Assembly: GCA_944376975.1 (NCBI GenBank)
Contig: CALWEE010000036.1
Location: 1-11,095 of the forward strand
DNA length: 11,095 nt
Direction of reading: 5' to 3'
DNA from: an uncultured Lachnospiraceae bacterium
GTDB taxonomy: Bacteria > Bacillota > Clostridia > Lachnospirales > Lachnospiraceae
In this document: piece after piece, positions 1-11,095 of the stretch
How positions within the stretch are numbered: the first letter of the stretch is position 1
Layout of the letters: the number at the start of each line of letters is the position of its first letter
Made by a program: the position numbers and the translations under genes
The notes under the pieces: generated by a model
Told to the model about the DNA's origin: nothing
Seen by the model: the letters and a program-made list of their open reading frames with translations, nothing else
Databases searched by the model: none

Positions 1-36
1 CACTCTTTACAAAGGGGAGTACTCTGAGGATGAAGA

Positions 37-57
37 TACAAAATTTTGAACATTGGA
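37..57 (+). repeat. 21-bp direct repeat, copy 1; candidate YhfZ operator
   Basis: TACAAAATTTTGAACATTGG plus one A is identical to 1078-1098. Its core CAAAATTTTG is a perfect 10-bp palindrome. It lies in the presumed leader of yhfZ, 23 nt before the chosen ATG. An exact 21-bp AT-rich repeat in a GC-rich neighbourhood, placed before the regulator and again before the second gene, is typical of an operator. Which protein binds it is inferred. Confidence 0.6.
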
Positions 58-80
58 AAGGGTCAGGAGGGCCAAATAAA

Positions 81-1013
81 ATGAAGCCGATGGTGAATAA
101 AGTTTTATATCAGAAAAAAGGCGTCACGATCAGCAATCTGGCCATGGATCTGCTTTCCAAGAACAAAGGGGACAGGATCCCCCCGGTCGCCTATTACCAG
201 CAGGAATTTCGGGTGTCCCGGGGGACCATACAGAACGCCTTTTCCTATCTTCAGGAGATCGGCGCCGTCGCGCTGGCGCATCACGGGCATCAGGGAACGT
301 ACATAGAAGATATGGATTACGGCAAACTTCAGGAAAGCTGCGTGCAGCAGAAGATACTGGGCATCATGCCCCTTCCCTATTCCCTCACCTATGAAGGTTT
401 CGCCACCGCGATCTACGAACAGCTCAACAGCCTGAAATTCAACATGGCTTATGCCCGGGGCGCGGTGGGAAGGATCGAGCTGGTGGAATCCGGAACGTAT
501 CAGTTCGCCGTCGTTTCCCAGTACGCGGCCTCTTACGCCATCGCGTCCGGGAAAGATGTGGAGATCCTCCAGAATTTCGGACCCGGGAGCTATCTGTCCA
601 GGCATGTGCTCCTTTTGCGGGACCCGAAGGCGGAAGGTATCGAAGACGGCATGCGGGTCGCCTATGACGACGACTCCCTTGACCAGAGCAAGATCACATC
701 CAACGTGATCAAGGGCCACAAGGTAGAGCTGGTCAATCTGCGGACCCAGCAGACTGTGGCGGCGCTCCACGGCGACGTGATCGACGCCGGCATATGCAAC
801 TATGACGACATCGTTGAAAACCATCATCTGGGGAACCTGAAGATGATATCCCTGTCGGAAAGAGATTATGATTACCAGTTTTCCACGGCGGTGATCCTCA
901 TCCGCAAAGGCAACATTTATCTGGAAGAGCTGATGCGCAAGAAGATAACCGTGGAGGATACGCTGCGTATCCTGGACGAAGTGAAGAACGGCAAACGGGA
1001 ACCTTATTATTGA
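81..1013 (+). CDS. yhfZ: YhfZ-family HTH transcriptional regulator
   Basis: Likely regulator of the downstream yhf operon. Residues about 15-75 form a GntR-like helix-turn-helix domain, with a recognition-helix stretch VSRGTIQNAFSYL at about 45-57. Residues about 90-310 resemble the YhfZ C-terminal domain, a periplasmic-binding-like sensor fold, and include the family signature IMPLPYSLTYEGFA. The ending EPYY also resembles the E. coli protein as I remember it (about 300 aa). I chose ATG 81 (310 aa) because AGGAGG lies 10 nt upstream and the length fits the family. The in-frame ATG at 30 would add 17 residues, has poor ribosome-binding spacing, and would place a 21-bp repeat shared with the yhfY leader inside the coding sequence. 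The effector ligand is unknown. The family call is confident; the regulatory target is inferred from position. Confidence 0.9.
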   Translation: MKPMVNKVLYQKKGVTISNLAMDLLSKNKGDRIPPVAYYQQEFRVSRGTIQNAFSYLQEIGAVALAHHGHQGTYIEDMDYGKLQESCVQQKILGIMPLPYSLTYEGFATAIYEQLNSLKFNMAYARGAVGRIELVESGTYQFAVVSQYAASYAIASGKDVEILQNFGPGSYLSRHVLLLRDPKAEGIEDGMRVAYDDDSLDQSKITSNVIKGHKVELVNLRTQQTVAALHGDVIDAGICNYDDIVENHHLGNLKMISLSERDYDYQFSTAVILIRKGNIYLEELMRKKITVEDTLRILDEVKNGKREPYY

Positions 1014-1022
1014 CCGGCCGCG

Positions 1023-1043
1023 GGGAGGTCCTTTGGGCCTCCC
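1023..1043 (+). other. hairpin in the yhfZ-yhfY gap
   Basis: GGGAGGTCC (1023-1031) pairs with GGGCCTCCC (1035-1043) across a TTT loop: nine pairs with one T-G wobble, starting 9 nt after the yhfZ stop. No T-run follows, so a strong intrinsic terminator is unlikely. It could weaken read-through or protect RNA ends between the regulator gene and the rest of the operon. Confidence 0.5.
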
Positions 1044-1077
1044 GGAACAGGTCGGGCACCATCAATATACACAATAG

Positions 1078-1098
1078 TACAAAATTTTGAACATTGGA
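1078..1098 (+). repeat. 21-bp direct repeat, copy 2; candidate YhfZ operator
   Basis: Identical to 37-57, with the palindromic core CAAAATTTTG at 1080-1089. The end of the repeat runs into the GGAGG ribosome binding site of yhfY (1096-1100), so a protein bound here could block translation-proximal transcription or mark a second promoter. No convincing -35/-10 pair could be assigned in 1014-1107. Confidence 0.6.
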
Positions 1099-1107
1099 GG
1101 TTGAGTC

Positions 1108-1479
1108 ATGAGTACCACAGAGTTGAAAGAAAGCCTGTATGCCCGTGTCGGGATACTGGAAGACAATCAGGTGATCGGCAAAAAAGAGGCCGATTTCACG
1201 CGGCGCGCGGTGGATATGCTCCTTGCCGAGAAACCGGACGCTTCCGCCGAGAAGGCAGAGATGTTTTTCACCCATCTGGCCATGGCCGCCATGCGGGCGG
1301 AACAGGGCATCGCGGAAAATCCCATCGACGCGGCGATACTGGAAGCGGCGGCGTATGAGCCGTCCTGGGAGAAGGCGGTGGATTTCAGGGACCGCCTGAT
1401 GAAGGAGACCGATATCGCGTTCCCTCAGACGGAAAAGGATTTCCTGTCGGTGCATCTGTGCAATCTTTTCGCGGAGTAA
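1108..1479 (+). CDS. yhfY: YhfY, stand-alone PRD domain protein
   Basis: Small helical protein of 123 aa (E. coli YhfY is about 120 aa) matching one PTS regulation domain (PRD) without an HTH or PTS EIIA/EIIB partner domain. Two histidines at the usual PRD positions are visible: His56 in FFTHLAMA and His116 in LSVHLCN. These are the residues that PTS proteins phosphorylate in other PRDs, but no PTS gene is nearby, so phosphorylation is only possible, not shown. The start ATG has GGAGG 7 nt upstream. It sits between the regulator and yhfU, so a sensing or accessory regulatory role is inferred. Confidence 0.85.
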   Translation: MSTTELKESLYARVGILEDNQVIGKKEADFTRRAVDMLLAEKPDASAEKAEMFFTHLAMAAMRAEQGIAENPIDAAILEAAAYEPSWEKAVDFRDRLMKETDIAFPQTEKDFLSVHLCNLFAE

Positions 1480-1525
1480 ATAAAGCATAACGGCGCCAAA
1501 AGCGCTTGAGATAAGGAGGATTATT

Positions 1526-1900
1526 ATGAAAATTGTTGTTGGCGGACAGATCGATAAGGAAGAGATCGCTTCCCTTATCAGAAAACAGCTGGGTGACGCG
1601 GCCGAAGTGACGGTCAAAGGCGACCTGGAGGCGACCATGGGCATGAAAAGCGGTCAGTACGACTACTATGTAGGCGCCTGCAATACAGGCGGAGGCGGCG
1701 CGCTGGCTATGGCGCTGGCTTTGCTTGGAAAGGCCAACTGCGCCACTGTTTCCATGCCGGGAAATATCCGGAGCGATGAAGAGATCCGGGACGAAGTCCG
1801 GAGCGGAAAAGTCGCTTTCGGTTTCACCGCGCAGCATAAAGAAGCCGTTTTGCCGGTGCTTCTGGATGCTTTTGTTAAGAAAGAGGAGGGAACGTTATGA
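1526..1900 (+). CDS. yhfU: YhfU, DUF2620 family protein
   Basis: A 124-aa soluble protein of a family with no established function (DUF2620; E. coli YhfU is about 117 aa). It opens with a beta strand followed by a GG (MKIVVGGQ), has a glycine-rich turn ACNTGGGGALAMA at 51-63, then CATVSMPGN at 72-80. The overall alternation of strands and helices looks like a small alpha/beta nucleotide- or phosphate-binding fold; that is an impression, not a proven homology. AAGGAGG lies 7 nt before the ATG. The last codons overlap yhfT by four bases (ATGA), so the two are translationally coupled, and a partnership with the YhfT membrane protein is a reasonable inference. Confidence 0.88.
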   Translation: MKIVVGGQIDKEEIASLIRKQLGDAAEVTVKGDLEATMGMKSGQYDYYVGACNTGGGGALAMALALLGKANCATVSMPGNIRSDEEIRDEVRSGKVAFGFTAQHKEAVLPVLLDAFVKKEEGTL

Positions 1901-3207
1901 GATATGTTGTGATCGCTTTGATCGGCGCTCTCGCGGCACTTTTGTCCAACCAGGGTATCGCGGTGTTCAACGACGGCTTCCGGCCGATCGTTGGCCAGTA
2001 CTTCAACAAAGAGATCAGCCGTAAAGAGCTGGCGGCCATGAGTTTCGCCATCAGCTTTGGTCTGGTCATCGGATTTGGTATCCCCACATCCATCGCGGCA
2101 AGCATCATCCTGATCCACTGCCTGCTGCTGACCACGGATATCATCGGATCTTTCTGTCCGGCCACAAAGACCGGTATGATCCTGTCCGCGGTCATCGGCG
2201 CCGTATATGGCCTGGCTGTCCTGGCCGGCCTGGAATTCATCGTGAACCTGTTCGCGATGATGCCTTACAACTTTACCAATGAACTGGGTAACGTATCCAC
2301 ATATGTTACCGTTGCCTTTGCCGTATTCCCGGCTGTCGGCGTAGCGTACCAGCACGGGTTCAAAAAAGGCGTGATCACGGCTGCCGTGACCGTAGCGGCC
2401 TATTTTCTTGTTTCCAAATTCGGAACATTTTCCATCGGCGGCAACACGGTTGCCCTGAACGCGGCCGGTATGGCCATGCTGGTGGGCATGATCCTCATGA
2501 TCGTATTCGCTGCCCGTCAGAAAGGTACGAACGACGCCAACGCGGCCCTGACCCAGACATTTGAGACCAATGTGTCCCGTATCCGTAAAAACTGGATCTT
2601 CCTGGCGGCTATGGGCGGTCTGATCGCGGCCGGCACAAGTATGGCGCTCATCGCCGGCGACCCGGCTTCCCTGGCGCTGCTGGCTGAAGGGGAATACACC
2701 AACGCGGCCCTGACCGCTCTGGCGCGGGCCATCGGTTTCATCCCGCTTGTATTTACCACGGCGATCGTAACCGGCGTATATGGAACATCCGGATGTACCT
2801 TCGTATTCGTTGTCGGCCTGCTCCTCCATGGCAATCCCATCGTCGCGTTCATCGTCGGCGTTGTTGTCATGGTCGTTGAGATCGCTCTGATCAACCTGTT
2901 CGCGAAAGGCATGGACCGTTTCCCGGGCGTGAAAGACATGGGCGAGCACGTACGTACATCTATGAATAAAGTCCTGGAAGTCGCTCTTTTGGCAGGCGGT
3001 ATCGTATCGGCCGAGCAGATGGCTTCCGCGGCGTCCGGCCTTGCCGGCGTCGGCGCGCTGTTCGTTATCGGCGCGTTCCTGCTGAACAAAAAGGCGAAGA
3101 AACCGATCGCCGATATGGCTGTCGGCCCGGTTGCCTGCATCATATTTGGAGTTCTTCTGAACCTGCTGCTGCTCATCGGCCTGATCGCCGTTCCGGCAGC
3201 GGCCTGA
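1897..3207 (+). CDS. yhfT: YhfT, polytopic membrane protein, probable transporter
   Basis: A 436-aa integral membrane protein matching the YhfT family (E. coli YhfT is about 434 aa). Roughly 11-12 hydrophobic segments are visible, for example near residues 3-22, 50-80, 92-120, 133-150, 157-172, 185-206, 232-253, 272-310, 313-336, 380-396 and 405-430. Small conserved-looking loops include FGIPTSIAAS (60-69), GSFCPATKTGM (84-94) and VYGTSGCTF (294-302). A basic and acidic loop at about 207-231 splits the protein into two halves. No signal peptide beyond the first membrane segment. The ATGA overlap with yhfU and AGGAGG at 1884-1889 support the start. Transport of the pathway substrate is inferred from topology and context; the substrate is unknown. 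Confidence 0.88.
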   Translation: MRYVVIALIGALAALLSNQGIAVFNDGFRPIVGQYFNKEISRKELAAMSFAISFGLVIGFGIPTSIAASIILIHCLLLTTDIIGSFCPATKTGMILSAVIGAVYGLAVLAGLEFIVNLFAMMPYNFTNELGNVSTYVTVAFAVFPAVGVAYQHGFKKGVITAAVTVAAYFLVSKFGTFSIGGNTVALNAAGMAMLVGMILMIVFAARQKGTNDANAALTQTFETNVSRIRKNWIFLAAMGGLIAAGTSMALIAGDPASLALLAEGEYTNAALTALARAIGFIPLVFTTAIVTGVYGTSGCTFVFVVGLLLHGNPIVAFIVGVVVMVVEIALINLFAKGMDRFPGVKDMGEHVRTSMNKVLEVALLAGGIVSAEQMASAASGLAGVGALFVIGAFLLNKKAKKPIADMAVGPVACIIFGVLLNLLLLIGLIAVPAAA

Positions 3208-3224
3208 TCATCGGACATACACAG

Positions 3225-3361
3225 GGGCGAAAGGCGGACGCCTTCTGCCCGACACAGCATCAAGCATCCTGAAGCATAGACGGCATACGGCTATGCGCGA
3301 CAAACCGGCATACATATAAACAGACGCTCCTCCGGGAAGCCCGGGCAAAGGGCTTTCCGGA
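3225..3361 (+). other. hairpin-rich yhfT-php spacer
   Basis: The 202-bp gap between yhfT and php codes for nothing I can see but holds three inverted repeats: 3225-3235 with 3240-3250 (11 positions, one wobble and one mismatch), GCATAG 3274-3279 with CTATGC 3291-3296, and 3331-3342 with 3350-3361 (12 positions, one wobble). None is followed by a T-run, so they look more like RNA processing or stability elements, or a weak attenuator, than intrinsic terminators. TATAAA at 3315-3320 could be a -10 box but has no good -35. Confidence 0.5.
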
Positions 3362-3409
3362 AGGGCGATCTTCAGATCATAAGGGATCTTTCATAAACAG
3401 GTGAAAACA

Positions 3410-4291
3410 ATGGAATTAAAAGATGGCTATACATTAATGCACGAGCATGTGACAATAGATTTATCCGGAGTAAAAAAAGACGACGACTGCCGGCTGGACT
3501 GTTTCGACGAAACAGTCAAAGAGTTTAAGCGGCTCTATGACTACGGCGTACGCAATATACTGGAAGTGACCAACATGGGGATGGGACGGGATCCGCGCTA
3601 TATCCGCGAAGTGGAAAAGGCGAGCGGCATACAGATCATCATGTCCACCGGATTCTATAAAGAACCCTTCCTCCCGGACTTTGTTTACAGACAGACGGCG
3701 GAAGAACTGGCCGACCTGGCGGTAAAAGAGATCACGGAAGGCATTGACGATACCGGCTTTAAAGCCAGCGTGATCGGCGAATTCGGGACCAGCAAAGACC
3801 AGATGACGGCCATGGAAGAAAAGGTGTTTGAAGCCATGTCCCTGGCGGCGGTACGGACAAACGTCCCGGTGACCACCCACACGACCCTCGGCACCATGGG
3901 GGCGCGGCAGGCGGATTACCTGATCGCCCATGGCGTGAAGCCGGAGAAGATCATCATCGGCCACATGGATCTGTCCCAGGATACGGACTATATCCTGTCC
4001 GTCCTTGAAAAAGGCGTGAACGTGGGATTTGACACGGTGGGCAAATTGAACTATTGCCCGGATACGTTCCGGGTGGAGGCGCTGAAACGGATCGCCGATG
4101 AAGGACGGCTGGGACAGGTGGTCCTGTCCATGGACATTACCCGTAAATCCCATATGAAATATAAAGGCGGCATCGGCTATGGCTATATGTTTGAGTCGTT
4201 CATACCGCTGTTAAAAGAAAACGGATTCACCCAGAGCCAGATCGACCGGCTTCTTGTGGACAAACCGAAACGCATACTGGAAAGCATGTGA
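3410..4291 (+). CDS. php: Phosphotriesterase homology protein (YhfV/Php)
   Basis: Binuclear metal hydrolase of the amidohydrolase/phosphotriesterase superfamily. The metal-site residues are all present on the numbering from ATG 3410 (293 aa; E. coli Php is 292 aa): His11 and His13 in MHEHVTID, Glu124 in GEFGTS, which bridges the metals in this subfamily in place of carboxylated lysine, His157 in TTHTT, His185 in IGHMDLS, and Asp242 in SMDITRKSH. E. coli Php is structurally known but has no confirmed physiological substrate; a lactone or phosphoester is possible. I chose ATG 3410 because AGGTGA lies 5 nt upstream; the in-frame GTG at 3401 would overlap that site. The first 25 codons are unusually AT-rich compared with the rest of the gene. 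Confidence 0.93.
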   Translation: MELKDGYTLMHEHVTIDLSGVKKDDDCRLDCFDETVKEFKRLYDYGVRNILEVTNMGMGRDPRYIREVEKASGIQIIMSTGFYKEPFLPDFVYRQTAEELADLAVKEITEGIDDTGFKASVIGEFGTSKDQMTAMEEKVFEAMSLAAVRTNVPVTTHTTLGTMGARQADYLIAHGVKPEKIIIGHMDLSQDTDYILSVLEKGVNVGFDTVGKLNYCPDTFRVEALKRIADEGRLGQVVLSMDITRKSHMKYKGGIGYGYMFESFIPLLKENGFTQSQIDRLLVDKPKRILESM

Positions 4292-4313
4292 CGGGGGAGA
4301 GGAGGAAAGGATC

Positions 4314-5408
4314 ATGCGGACTTACCCATTATGCAGCCTGAGCGTGGAAGAAGCGATGAAACGCCAGTTCCGGGTGGTGGACTGCATTACGAAAGAATTT
4401 GAAGGACACGAGTTTTTGAACAGAGGCGACCTGGGCGTGGTCATGGGGCTGAACAAACCGGTGACCACATGGAAAGCGGAAAAGGTGATCGCCCGTATTT
4501 TTCACGCGGAAGCGGCCATGCTCGTCCGGGGAGCCGGGAGCGGCGCCATCCGTCTGGGCCTTCACGCCATGCTGAAATGCGGGGAGAAGATACTGGTGCA
4601 TAAAGCGCCGATCTACAGCACGACGGCCACATCGCTGGAGATGATGGGCATCATCCCGGTGGAAGCGGACTACAATGACCTTTCCGATATCCGGCGCGCG
4701 CTGACGGCCGATCCGGATATCGCCGGCGCCCTTGTCCAGTACACCCGACAGAAGCTGGACGACCGTTACGATATGGGCGAAGTGATCCGGACCATCAAAG
4801 ACGTCCGGGATATCCCGATCATCACCGATGACAATTACGCGGTCATGAAAGTGGAAAAGACCGGGGCGGAATGGGGAGCGGACCTGTCCTGCTTCTCATC
4901 GTTCAAACTGCTCGGGCCGGAAGGCGTGGGCGTGATCATCGGCAAAAAAGCGTATATCGACAAGCTGATACAGGAAAATTATTCCGGCGGCATGCAGGTC
5001 CAGGGCCACGAGGCCATGGATGTGCTCCACGGACTGGTGTACGCGCCGGTTTCCCTGGCCATCCAGGCTCAGGTCAATGAAGAATGTGTCCGCCGCCTGA
5101 AAGACGGGGAGATACCGGAAGTCAAAGACGCGTTTCTGGCCAATGCCCAGTCCAAAGTCCTTCTGGTGGAATTTTACGACGATATTGCCGGGAAGGTGCT
5201 CGAAGAAGCCCAGAAGCTGGGCGCGGCGCCGAACCCGGTGGGGGCGGAATCCAAATACGAGATGGTCCCCATGGTATACAGAGTTTCAGGAACATTCAGG
5301 AAGGCCGATCCCACCCTTGAGCGTCGGATGATCCGTATCAATCCCATGCGGGCGGGCGCGGATACCATTCTTGAGATCATCAAAAAAGCAGTGGAAAGGG
5401 TGAAGTAA
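4314..5408 (+). CDS. yhfS: YhfS, PLP-dependent aminotransferase-fold enzyme
   Basis: Fold-type I PLP enzyme, 364 aa (E. coli YhfS about 361 aa). Visible landmarks are the phosphate-binding turn GAGSGAIR at 73-80, the Asp pair in IITDDNY (about 169-175) expected to contact the pyridine nitrogen, and Lys198 in SSFKLLGPEG as the likely Schiff-base lysine. The last motif recalls the selenocysteine-synthase/cystathionine-lyase-like branch more than classical aminotransferases, so lyase chemistry is also possible. Start ATG 4314 has GGAGG 8 nt upstream; an upstream in-frame start at 4254 would overlap php and is less likely. It lies 22 nt after php and directly abuts yhfX. The true substrate is unknown. 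Confidence 0.88.
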   Translation: MRTYPLCSLSVEEAMKRQFRVVDCITKEFEGHEFLNRGDLGVVMGLNKPVTTWKAEKVIARIFHAEAAMLVRGAGSGAIRLGLHAMLKCGEKILVHKAPIYSTTATSLEMMGIIPVEADYNDLSDIRRALTADPDIAGALVQYTRQKLDDRYDMGEVIRTIKDVRDIPIITDDNYAVMKVEKTGAEWGADLSCFSSFKLLGPEGVGVIIGKKAYIDKLIQENYSGGMQVQGHEAMDVLHGLVYAPVSLAIQAQVNEECVRRLKDGEIPEVKDAFLANAQSKVLLVEFYDDIAGKVLEEAQKLGAAPNPVGAESKYEMVPMVYRVSGTFRKADPTLERRMIRINPMRAGADTILEIIKKAVERVK

Positions 5409-6569
5409 ATGTTTCTGAAACAGACAATGGAACGCAACCGGCGGCTGATCGACGCGGCCTTCGCGCTGCATCAGGCGGGAAAGATCCTGCCCGATACCTA
5501 CGTGATCGACGTGGACGCTTTCCTGGAAAACGGGAAGAAGATCATCGATAAAGCCAAAGCCCGGGGCTATAAAATGTATTTCATGCTGAAACAGGCGGGG
5601 AGGAATCCCTGGCTGGCGGAGGAACTGACCCGTATGGGCTATGACGGCGCCGTCGTCGTCGATTACAAAGAAGCCCTGACCATGATGGAACATCACATTC
5701 CCCTCGGCAATGTGGGCCATCTTGTGCAGATCCCCGGAAGCATGGTCAAAAAAGTGGTGGAAGCGAAACCGGAAGTGATCACGGTATACTCCCGGGAAAA
5801 GCTTTCGCAGATAGAGGCGGCAGCGGCAGAACTGGACCAGACCCAGGGTATCATGAGCCGGGGGGTTGACGATCCGGACATGATATAGTCCGGACAGACG
5901 GCCGGTTTCCATCTGGATGAACTGGAAGATACGGTGAACTGGATGCGAAAAACCTGCCCGCACCTGATCGTCAAAGGCGTCACGTCATTTCCGTGTTATC
6001 TTTATGACGCCCAAAGGGACGATATCGTCCCGACAGCCAATCTGGGGACTGTGAAAAAGGCGGAGGCCATACTGGACGCCATGGGCATACGGGACATCAT
6101 CCTGAACACGCCTTCCGCCACCTGCTGCCTCACCCTTGATAAAATGGCGGAGCACGGCGGCAACTGCGGCGAACCGGGCCACGGTCTTTCCGGGACCACG
6201 CCCATGCACGCGGTCCACGACATGGAGGAGATACCGGCGGTGGTTTACGTCAGCGAGATCTCTCATAATTTCGAGGGGAACGCCTACTGCTTCGGCGGCG
6301 GCCACTACAGACGGTCCCATGTGGAAAACGCCCTGGTGGGCAAAGACGCGGCCACCGGCGTATGGCGCGAAGTGATCCCGCCCTCCGATGAGAGCATCGA
6401 CTATCATTTCGGCATCCGGGGCGGCTGCCCTGTGGGCGATACCGTCGTTATGGCGTTCCGTTTCCAGATTTTCGTGACGCGCAGCGATGTGGCTCTGGTA
6501 CGAGGGCTTTCTGCCGGCCAGGGAGAACTGATCGGGATCTATGACAGCCAGGGAAGAAAGAAGGCATGA
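5409..6569 (+). pseudogene. yhfX: YhfX, alanine-racemase-like PLP enzyme with in-frame TAG
   Basis: Fold-type III PLP enzyme related to alanine racemase. The full frame is 386 codons before the TGA, matching E. coli YhfX (about 387 aa), but codon 160 is TAG. The N-terminal half (5409-5888, 159 aa) has the beta-alpha barrel start with Lys61 in YFMLKQAGRN as the likely PLP lysine. The second half (codons 161-386) stays in the same frame with family motifs SGQTAGF directly after the stop, TSFPCYLYD, LNTPSATC, GEPGHGLSGTTPMHA, HYRRSHVENA and QIFVTRSDVALV. No other stop or frameshift is seen, and the end overlaps yhfW by ATGA. A GTG at 5934 could restart the second half but has only a weak ribosome binding site. 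In homologues I recall Tyr before SGQ, one base from TAG. It may be a fresh nonsense mutation, a sequence error, or a read-through/recoded codon. Confidence 0.85.
5886..5888 (+). other. in-frame amber codon inside yhfX
   Basis: Reading from ATG 5409, the codons GAC ATG ATA are followed by TAG and then TCC GGA CAG in the same frame. The conserved peptide SGQTAGF follows at once. A perfect 7-bp inverted repeat, TCCGGAC 5873-5879 with GTCCGGA 5888-5894, encloses an 8-nt loop that ends at the TA of the codon. Confidence 0.9.
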
Positions 6570-7780
6570 ACATGAAAAAGTTTATCGTCATCGTTCTGGA
6601 CGGGTTCGGCATCGGCGCCATGGACGACGCCGCGACCGCCCGCCCGGGGGATGAAAAAGCCAATACATTAAGGAGCATCCTGAAAGATCATCCGGACCTT
6701 AAACTGCCCAATCTGGAAAAGCTGGGATTGATGAACGCTTTCGGCAGCGAAAGCGGGCGCATGGCGTTCCATGACGAAGCCAATTTCGGCAAGTCTGCCC
6801 TGATGCACTTCGGCGCGGATACCTTCATGGGCCATCAGGAGATCATGGGGACGCTGCCGAAAAAACCGGACGTCCATCCGTTTCAGGAAAAGGTGGACGC
6901 GGTGGCGGACCATCTGCGAAAAAACGGCCATGACGTGAAGATCATCAAAAGGCAGGGGCTGCGCTACGTCCTGTGCGACGACTACGTGACTGTAGCCGAC
7001 AATCTGGAGGCGGATCTGGGCATGTGCTACAACGTGACCGCGCCGCTGGATTTCATATCCTTTGAGAAAGAGTGTGCCATCGCCCGTCTGGTGCGGGAAG
7101 TGGTAACGGTGGGGCGGGTCATCGTATTCGGCGGGACAGGCAACACCATGGACGATCTGTGGAACGCGGAGGAGATCAAAGACGGCCGGTTCATCGGCAT
7201 CGCTTCCGCCAAGTCCCGGTCCTATGAACAGGGCTATCAATGCCTCCACCTGGGATATGGCGTGGACAAAAACGTCCAGGCGCCCACCATCCTCACCAAC
7301 GCGGGGATACCGGTGACGCTCATCGGGAAGGTGGCGGATATCGTGGCCAACGACGGCGGGGAAAGCATTTCCTGCGTGCCGACGGCGGAATGCCTGAGCC
7401 ATACCATTGAGGCGTACCGGCGCATGGAGACCGGGTTCATATGCACCAACGTCCAAGAGACCGACCTGGCCGGCCATTCCCAGTCTTCCGATACCTATAA
7501 AGAAATATTGGAGATCGCCGACCGGGGCATCGGCGAACTGATCCCCATGCTCACGGAGGACGATATCCTGCTGGTCATGGCGGATCACGGGAACGATCCG
7601 GACATCGGCCACAGCAAGCACACGCGGGAGAACGTGCCGCTGCTCGTCTACAAAAAAGGCGTTCACGGAAAACGCCTGGGACAGCGAACGACCCTTTCCG
7701 ACGTGGGAGCCAGCGTGTGCGACTATTTCCAGGTGGACGCGCCTCAGAACGGCCGGTCCTTTCTGGAACGCTTAAAATAA
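6566..7780 (+). CDS. yhfW: YhfW, phosphopentomutase-like metalloenzyme
   Basis: Alkaline-phosphatase superfamily protein of the phosphopentomutase (DeoB) branch, 404 aa (E. coli YhfW about 408 aa). Metal and catalytic motifs are in order: Asp12 in VLDGFGIGAMDD, Thr86 in ADTFMGHQEIMG as the likely phosphorylated residue, GGESISCVPTAE (264-275), Asp300 and His304 in QETDLAGHSQ, and Asp340, His341 and His352 in MADHGNDPDIGHSKHT. It probably moves or removes a phosphate on a sugar-like intermediate; the substrate is unknown. ATG 6566 overlaps the yhfX stop. ATG 6572 (starting MKKFIVIVLDGFG) is an equally good start, with AAGG 7 nt upstream. Last gene of the operon. Confidence 0.9.
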   Translation: MNMKKFIVIVLDGFGIGAMDDAATARPGDEKANTLRSILKDHPDLKLPNLEKLGLMNAFGSESGRMAFHDEANFGKSALMHFGADTFMGHQEIMGTLPKKPDVHPFQEKVDAVADHLRKNGHDVKIIKRQGLRYVLCDDYVTVADNLEADLGMCYNVTAPLDFISFEKECAIARLVREVVTVGRVIVFGGTGNTMDDLWNAEEIKDGRFIGIASAKSRSYEQGYQCLHLGYGVDKNVQAPTILTNAGIPVTLIGKVADIVANDGGESISCVPTAECLSHTIEAYRRMETGFICTNVQETDLAGHSQSSDTYKEILEIADRGIGELIPMLTEDDILLVMADHGNDPDIGHSKHTRENVPLLVYKKGVHGKRLGQRTTLSDVGASVCDYFQVDAPQNGRSFLERLK

Positions 7781-10215: not shown

Positions 10216-11095
10216 TTATTCAAACTGGCGGAATACCCGGTCGTAGACATCCAGTATATCGTCGATCATGGACGCGGTCTCGTAGCACAGATAGGTCTTG
10301 CCGCCGCCGGATATGATCAGGCCTTCCGCGGTGAGGGCCATGGCGAATTCCATGACGCAGCGGGACGCCTCCGCCGTCTGACGGGCATATTCCGGATCCG
10401 ACGGCTTGTAGAAGGTGGGGATATGCTGGGAAGCGGCCACGTCGATGTGAAGGATGGACTGATGGTTGAACACGAGAGCCGGTATCTGATATTTATCGGT
10501 CAGCGCGCCGATCTCTTTCATCAGCCGGTCCGCCGCATCAGCCATGATCTTATGGGCGCCCAGCCGTTCCAGTTCCTCAATGGTCCGCCGTCCCGCGAAA
10601 GCGGTCAGCGGGTTGGCGGAGAGGGTGCCGCCCACCCGGACTTTCTGTGAACGGTCTTTGTTGATGCCGGCGGCCAGCATGGAGATGATCTCCTGTCTGC
10701 CTCCGATGCCGCCGGAACAGCCGAATCCGCCGCCGATGATCTTGCCGAAGATGGTCAGGTCCGGATGGGTCCCGAAAAGGGCCTGGGCGCCGCCCATGCC
10801 GATACGGAAAGCGGTGACCACTTCATCGTAGATCAGGAGCGCGTTGTACTTGCGGCAAAGTTTTTCCGCTTCTTTATGATATTCCGGCGTCAGCGGAACG
10901 GCGCCGCTGTCCTGTCCGAGAGGCTCCAGGATGAGAGCGGCGGTACCGCCCTGTTTTTCGTTTTCAGCGAACTGGCGCTCCAGGTCTTCGATATCGTTGG
11001 GCTCCACGCAATGGGTGCTCTTGAAGCAGTCGACGGGGATGCCGTTAAGGCAGGCCTGACCGTTGGGCGCTTCCACCGCGTTGTAGATCAGCTGG
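10216..11095 (-). CDS. Class III aminotransferase, GSA-aminomutase-like (partial)
   Basis: C-terminal 292 residues of a fold-type I, class III PLP enzyme; the frame stays open past the right edge of the window, so the N-terminal part is missing. Numbering from the first whole codon, the pyridine-binding Asp90 is in LLIYDEVVTAFR, GMGGAQALFG is at about 99-108, the likely Schiff-base Lys118 is in TIFGKIIGGGF, and GTLSANPLT is at about 157-165. These motifs are closest to glutamate-1-semialdehyde 2,1-aminomutase, which makes 5-aminolevulinate. However, the C-terminus (GLIISGGGKTYLCYET) differs from typical HemL and no haem gene is nearby, so a different amino-acid aminotransferase or aminomutase is equally possible. 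It ends with TAA and converges on the metY-like gene. Confidence 0.85.
   Translation of the reverse strand, partial: QLIYNAVEAPNGQACLNGIPVDCFKSTHCVEPNDIEDLERQFAENEKQGGTAALILEPLGQDSGAVPLTPEYHKEAEKLCRKYNALLIYDEVVTAFRIGMGGAQALFGTHPDLTIFGKIIGGGFGCSGGIGGRQEIISMLAAGINKDRSQKVRVGGTLSANPLTAFAGRRTIEELERLGAHKIMADAADRLMKEIGALTDKYQIPALVFNHQSILHIDVAASQHIPTFYKPSDPEYARQTAEASRCVMEFAMALTAEGLIISGGGKTYLCYETASMIDDILDVYDRVFRQFE

What the first reader, a model, noticed from the sequence alone, without database searches (positions are those of the whole stretch)
5409..6569. yhfX is split by one in-frame TAG but otherwise intact
Codon 160 of a 386-codon frame is TAG. The frame, the family motifs on both sides, the full-length size and the ATGA overlap with yhfW are all preserved. 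A decaying gene would normally show more damage. The options are a very recent nonsense mutation, a base error, amber suppression, or recoding with an inserted amino acid such as pyrrolysine. The codon sits where homologues, as I recall them, have Tyr before SGQ, near the PLP-barrel region.
Basis: partly seen in the sequence, partly recalled or inferred. Interest (0 to 1): 0.7.

Follow-up and report, generated by a model that had tools for sequence, protein, structure and literature searches.

The report
Likely base-call errors in yhfX
The stop codon inside this enzyme gene is most likely one of a cluster of four sequencing errors in a draft gut-bacterium genome, because a near-identical intact version of the protein exists and no machinery for reading the stop as an amino acid was found.

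Summary
The TAG at 5886-5888, codon 160 of the yhfX frame, is there as described. Three more odd codons (150, 152, 153) lie within ten codons upstream, one at a Val that all 120 listed homologues keep. A near-identical intact protein (P0002, 386 aa; inferred to come from the same or a very close species) matches the window except at eight codons, and four of those eight are 150, 152, 153 and 160. At all four sites the same-genus genome G001 has T where the window has G. Four same-strand T>G differences within 32 bases of a 274-contig draft fit the error type reported as commonest for early Illumina data; platform and coverage here are unknown. All 120 listed homologues have Tyr at codon 160. 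The genome has RF1, other genes end in TAG, and no CTA-anticodon tRNA was seen among 28 tRNA matches nor a PylS above cut-off. Best explanation: miscalled bases (0.85). Main rival: a real recent clustered mutation (0.13). Raw reads would decide.

The parts
5409..6569 (+). yhfX, predicted PLP-dependent amino-acid racemase-like enzyme (386 codons), interrupted once
5886..5888 (+). in-frame TAG at codon 160, where 120 of 120 listed homologues have Tyr
5856..5888 (+). stretch with four codons (150, 152, 153, 160) that differ from the near-identical protein P0002; each difference fits a T>G change and G001 has T at each of the four sites
5873..5894 (+). 7-base inverted repeat (5873-5879 with 5888-5894); the G of the TAG is the innermost base of the second arm
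4314..5408 (+). yhfS, PLP-dependent aminotransferase-like gene upstream (searches used 4311 as first base, one codon too early)
6566..7780 (+). yhfW, phosphopentomutase-like gene overlapping the end of yhfX by ATGA; intact, used as a control
30..4291 (+). rest of the yhf operon: yhfZ regulator, small gene with a weak PRD match (below cut-off), DUF2620 gene, yhfT, phosphotriesterase-like gene

Best explanation
The gene in the organism is most likely an ordinary intact yhfX. The TAG and the three neighbouring odd codons are base-call errors that entered the contig where few reads covered it. Miscalls of T as G, which are reported to pile up late in reads and around GG and inverted-repeat contexts, would give four same-direction T>G changes in 32 bases, one of which turns a Tyr codon into TAG. 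Shown: the cluster, its single fitting change type, the intact near-identical protein, Tyr in all listed homologues, other genes ending in TAG. Inferred: low coverage, an Illumina platform and the read-level cause.
For: P0002 (386 aa, intact, representative of a cluster of 10 sequences) differs from the window's frame at 8 of 386 positions, 4 of them in codons 150-160. All four fit T>G (the one at 160 also C>G from protein alone), and G001 has T at all four sites. Of 157 columns conserved in at least 95% of the 120 homologues the window breaks 5; P0002 shares 3 of these (30, 46, 68), and the 2 it does not share, 152 and 160, are both in the cluster. Control: yhfW against its near-identical P0121 has, start aside, 8 substitutions, 4 of them transitions, at most 2 T>G and 1 more possibly A>C, no four within 11 codons, and breaks no conserved column that P0121 keeps. 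Meacham et al. [quoted passage not shown] PMC8002175 recounts the T-to-G preference and finds GGT the most error-associated trimer (passages); PMC3622629 names inverted repeats, GGC and GGT as error motifs (passages). One of the four sites is in a GGT context and an inverted repeat reaches the TAG (context read by eye). In 165,089 bases of 21 contigs the TAG is the only one of 8 well-supported in-frame stops without a start codon within 7 codons after it (picked by eye from 61 rows).
Against: No reads or coverage were available and the sequencing platform is unknown. The T-to-G preference recounted in PMC8002175 comes from early Genome Analyzer studies, and motif effects vary widely among the newer instruments, NovaSeq 6000 being less influenced; PMC3622629 says the GGT effect alone is small. 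Only one of the four sites is in GGT. P0002 comes from a 1,264-base contig and may carry errors of its own: at 271 and 309 the window has the commoner residue and P0002 the odd one. Its DNA could not be fetched, so silent differences are unknown. Codon 153 is variable in more distant relatives. Against G001, codons 150-160 are not an outlier in number of amino-acid differences (5; 42 of 376 windows of 11 codons reach 5). Real clustered mutations exist.
Confidence: 0.85

Rival explanations
1. A real, very recent clustered mutation in this strain: several bases changed in one event (error-prone repair, or template switching at the inverted repeat), leaving yhfX dead. The first 159 residues end before the C-terminal domain, so no working enzyme would be expected.
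For: The G of the TAG lengthens an inverted repeat from 6 to 7 bases, as a templated correction could. Outside the cluster only 4 codons differ from P0002, which fits a recent event.
Against: Template switching at this repeat would explain one of the four changes. Four same-strand T>G-type changes fit a reported instrument error better. No second copy of the gene was found in the genome (40 of 58 first-look candidates were scored), nor of 23 bases of the changed stretch with up to 3 mismatches, to act as donor.
Confidence: 0.13
2. TAG is read as an amino acid here, by pyrrolysine, an amber-suppressor tRNA or a changed code, and a full-length YhfX is made.
For: The frame is open on both sides. 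The draft is 91% complete and its tRNA set looks incomplete, so a missing suppressor cannot be excluded.
Against: 120 of 120 listed homologues have Tyr, so there is no conserved TAG. PylS: 0 of 5 genomes of the genus have a match over cut-off; weak matches of 20.7-25.7 bits against a cut-off of 178.15 occur in 5 of 5, and the control rings in 13 of 14 genomes but over the cut-off in 1. No CTA anticodon among 28 tRNA matches: 26 named by ARAGORN, 2 cut by contig ends and read by eye as CAT and GTA. A looser CTA pattern gave 4 matches against 8 in its control; 2 lie in tRNA-Leu(cag) and tRNA-Arg(tct), 2 give no tRNA. RF1 scores 540.6 bits, cut-off 423.25. TAG ends 14 of 104 greedy ORFs of 150 codons or more in 21 contigs; 12 remain after leaving out the yhfX TAG itself and one ORF antisense to yhfT. 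It would not explain codons 150, 152 and 153.
Confidence: 0.01
3. Two proteins: the gene has become a split pair, the second half starting from GTG 5934 or ATG 5943.
For: The second half is open and holds the YhfX-like C-terminal domain.
Against: The break falls inside the racemase domain (the first half matches positions 1-115 of 220 of that profile), not at a domain border. The first start is 16 codons after the TAG, and P0002 and G001 have the same stretch in one frame. The 120 listed homologues are 374-389 aa long, but that search could not list proteins under 0.55 of the query length and showed only the best 120.
Confidence: 0.01

Closest known systems
YhfX family PLP-dependent enzyme (solved example PDB 4kbx, 'Uncharacterized protein YhfX')
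   Same: P0002 matches 4kbx over residues 1-383 (E 1.4e-100); the window's halves match Ala_racemase_N and YhfX-like_C; the gene sits among other yhf genes
   Different: The window's copy has a TAG at the Tyr that 4kbx also keeps and three odd codons beside it
Illumina T>G miscalls (Meacham et al. 2011, PMC3295828; passages seen)
   Same: All four clustered changes fit T>G on one strand; one lies in a GGT context
   Different: That study measured repeated errors at fixed sites; here depth and platform are unknown and three of the four sites lack the GGT context
Pyrrolysine or amber-suppressed genes
   Same: An in-frame TAG in an otherwise open frame
   Different: No PylS over cut-off, no CTA tRNA found, no TAG at the site in listed relatives

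Membership tests
YhfX family | Ala_racemase_N domain followed by YhfX-like C-terminal domain | tested here: met
   halves match PF01168 (32.5 bits, cut-off 24.1) and PF21279 (125.4 bits, cut-off 27)
YhfX family | full-length reading frame with the conserved Tyr at codon 160 | tested here: not met
   TAG there in the contig; Tyr in 120 of 120 listed homologues and 30 of 30 loci
Pyrrolysine-encoding gene | PylS in the genome | tested here: not met
   0 of 5 genomes of the genus have a match over cut-off; the draft is 91% complete
Pyrrolysine-encoding gene | pylB, pylC, pylD in the genome | not tested
   not searched
Pyrrolysine-encoding gene | tRNA with CUA anticodon | tested here: not met
   none among 28 tRNA matches; pattern search below control level
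Pyrrolysine-encoding gene | TAG kept at the site in relatives | tested here: not met
   Tyr in 120 of 120 and 30 of 30
Code change (TAG as sense) | RF1 lost, or TAG not used as terminator | tested here: not met
   RF1 540.6 bits, cut-off 423.25; 12 other long ORFs end in TAG
Illumina miscall cluster | several same-type changes, T>G dominant, close together | tested here: met
   4 of 4 in codons 150-160 fit T>G
Illumina miscall cluster | disagreement among reads or very low depth at the site | not testable with these tools
   no reads available

The most novel reading that the evidence does not exclude
The four changes are real and came from one mutational event at a local inverted repeat, giving a snapshot of a gene killed by a strand-biased mutation shower in one gut strain.
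Probability: 0.1. Interest if true: 0.3.

Novelty: not a real feature. Interest (0 to 1): 0.07.

Why it matters
Single in-frame stops in draft genome bins are easily taken for recoding or decay. Comparing with a near-identical protein and looking for neighbouring same-type changes is a cheap test that separates miscalls from biology, and here it removes a false lead for amber recoding.

Tried and rejected
Diversity-generating retroelement or gene conversion: the gene (40 of 58 candidates scored) and 23 bases of the changed stretch with up to 3 mismatches were found once in the genome, so no donor was seen. TAG as a sense codon: rejected. Pyrrolysine by PylS or tRNA, or a suppressor tRNA: not found; pylB, pylC and pylD were not searched.

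A first codon-usage scan for in-frame stops was badly tuned and missed even the yhfX TAG. It was redone with other training: 61 candidates at a permissive threshold, of which, by eye, 8 have their own frame scoring above the other frames on both sides (one more, L068:7139, ties). Seven of the 8 have a start codon within 7 codons; the yhfX TAG has none for 16. The scan needs 40 open codons on each side, and its training set includes at least one antisense ORF, so it is rough. ABC-transporter domains as a yardstick: 59 matches in G000, 26 of them among the printed rows, those 26 without inside stops (counted by eye). Invariant-column scan of the window genes: yhfZ, nfo and the methionine gamma-lyase-like gene had 3, 1 and 1 homologues among the 30 loci and gave nothing; the window broke 2 of 27 invariant columns in orf1108 (5 homologues only), 1 of 39 in yhfT, 1 of 33 in the phosphotriesterase-like gene, 0 of 16 in yhfU, 0 of 96 in yhfS, 0 of 108 in yhfW and 1 of 83 (the TAG) in yhfX. 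None of those breaks outside yhfX fits a single T>G. yhfS was no near-identical control, because its best match is the window's own protein. One paper search for YhfX found 10 papers, 9 listed; by title and abstract start none is about its function (listing only).

Full report
Observation. The window is the whole of contig C36 of a draft genome of 1,828,507 bases in 274 contigs, 91.43% complete. The frame 5409-6569 holds one in-frame stop, TAG at 5886-5888, codon 160 of 386. Its halves match Ala_racemase_N and YhfX-like_C, and it lies between yhfS and yhfW in a yhf operon.

Relatives. With the C-terminal half as query, 2 of 61 genomes have a match, the own one included; of the four other genomes of the genus one, G001, has it, intact. 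G001 is taken to be Ca. Onthocola gallistercoris, because a contig of that name has the same length, 34,458 bases, and an identical YhfX (L004). A protein search with G001's YhfX found 2,102 matches and listed the best 120. P0002 among them is intact, 386 aa, and near-identical to the window's frame; that it comes from the same or a very close species is inferred from this. All 120 have Tyr at codon 160, and so do all 30 loci from named genomes, G001's contig included; none of these 30 has a stop inside. The solved YhfX 4kbx also aligns with Tyr there.

The overlooked damage. The window and P0002 differ at eight codons: 63, 150, 152, 153, 160, 271, 309 and 369. Four of these lie in codons 150-160. 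Random placement of eight differences puts four within 11 codons in about 0.3% of 200,000 trials; this was tested after seeing the cluster. At 152 all 120 homologues have Val, at 150 all have L, I or V, and at 153, 113 of 120 have Tyr or Phe; the window has Gly, Ser and Val. In the 30 more diverse loci 150 is L or I in 30, 152 is V in 26 and L, M or A in 4, and 153 is variable, so 153 is the weakest of the four. Each of the four differences fits a change of T to G, and G001 has T at all four places. Of the other four differences, one more fits T>G (369), one A>C (309), one C>G (271) and one T>C (63). At 271 and 309 P0002, not the window, has the rarer residue, so P0002 may carry errors too.

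Conserved columns. Of 157 columns conserved in at least 95% of the 120 homologues the window departs at five: 30, 46, 68, 152 and 160. P0002 shares the first three, so only 152 and 160 are peculiar to the window.

Control. The neighbour yhfW compared with its near-identical P0121 shows, start aside, eight substitutions: four transitions, at most two T>G and one that may be A>C, with no four within 11 codons. Of 246 conserved columns the window breaks one, and P0121 shares it. For yhfS the nearest protein is the window's own, so it is no such control. Against the more distant G001, codons 150-160 do not stand out in number of amino-acid differences (42 of 376 windows of 11 codons reach 5). The signal rests on the near-identical protein and on the conserved residues.

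Why miscalls. Passages of Meacham et al. (PMC3295828) report an extremely strong tendency for T>G errors, mostly at GGT, and more errors toward read ends. Passages of PMC8002175 recount the T-to-G preference from early Genome Analyzer work and find GGT the most error-associated trimer, with wide variation among newer instruments. Passages of PMC3622629 name GGC, inverted repeats and GGT as error motifs but call the GGT effect alone small. Here one of the four sites lies in a GGT context, and a 7-base inverted repeat spans 5873-5894 with the G of the TAG as the innermost base of its second arm. That the data are Illumina reads and that the site was thinly covered is inference.

Why not recoding. 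No PylS match over cut-off in any of the five genomes of the genus; weak matches far below the cut-off occur in all five and in most control genomes. Among 28 tRNA matches none has a CTA anticodon: ARAGORN named 26, and I read the other two, cut by contig ends, as CAT and GTA. A looser pattern gave four matches against eight in its control; two are in tRNA-Leu(cag) and tRNA-Arg(tct), two give no tRNA. RF1 is present. In 21 contigs (165,089 bases, window included) TAG ends 14 of 104 greedy ORFs of 150 codons or more; two of the 14 are the yhfX TAG itself and an ORF antisense to yhfT, leaving 12. In the same contigs the yhfX TAG is the only one of 8 well-supported in-frame stops not followed by a start codon within 7 codons (chosen by eye). 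The tRNA set looks incomplete and pylB, pylC and pylD were not searched, so absence is not proof.

Verdict. Most likely an ordinary intact yhfX with four base-call errors in the assembly (0.85). A real clustered mutation in one strain is the main rival (0.13). Recoding or a split gene is very unlikely (0.01 each).

Noticed in passing
window 30-7780: The yhf operon looks patchy: a relative of the YhfX C-terminal half was found in 2 of 61 genomes (own included) and in 2 of 5 of the genus, which suggests gain or loss.
   Followed up: no
window 4869-4874: yhfS reads Glu-Trp where 116 of 120 homologues have Gln and 116 of 120 have Cys; 4 and 3 of 120 share the window's residues, one of them the window's own protein, while the next closest (P0242, 91%) has Gln-Cys. 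Both differences fit changes to G, so a second miscall spot is possible; unresolved.
   Followed up: partly
window 4314-5408: The protein database lists the window's YhfS (P0241) on 2 contigs, the longest of 11,100 bases, while the window contig has 11,095; a second, nearly equal contig may exist whose yhfX could be checked.
   Followed up: no
window 5849-5894: Two 7-base inverted repeats (5849-5855 with 5879-5885; 5873-5879 with 5888-5894) overlap the cluster of odd codons.
   Followed up: partly
window 10216-11094: A minus-strand ORF runs off the contig end; it looks like a class-III aminotransferase (recalled, not searched).
   Followed up: no
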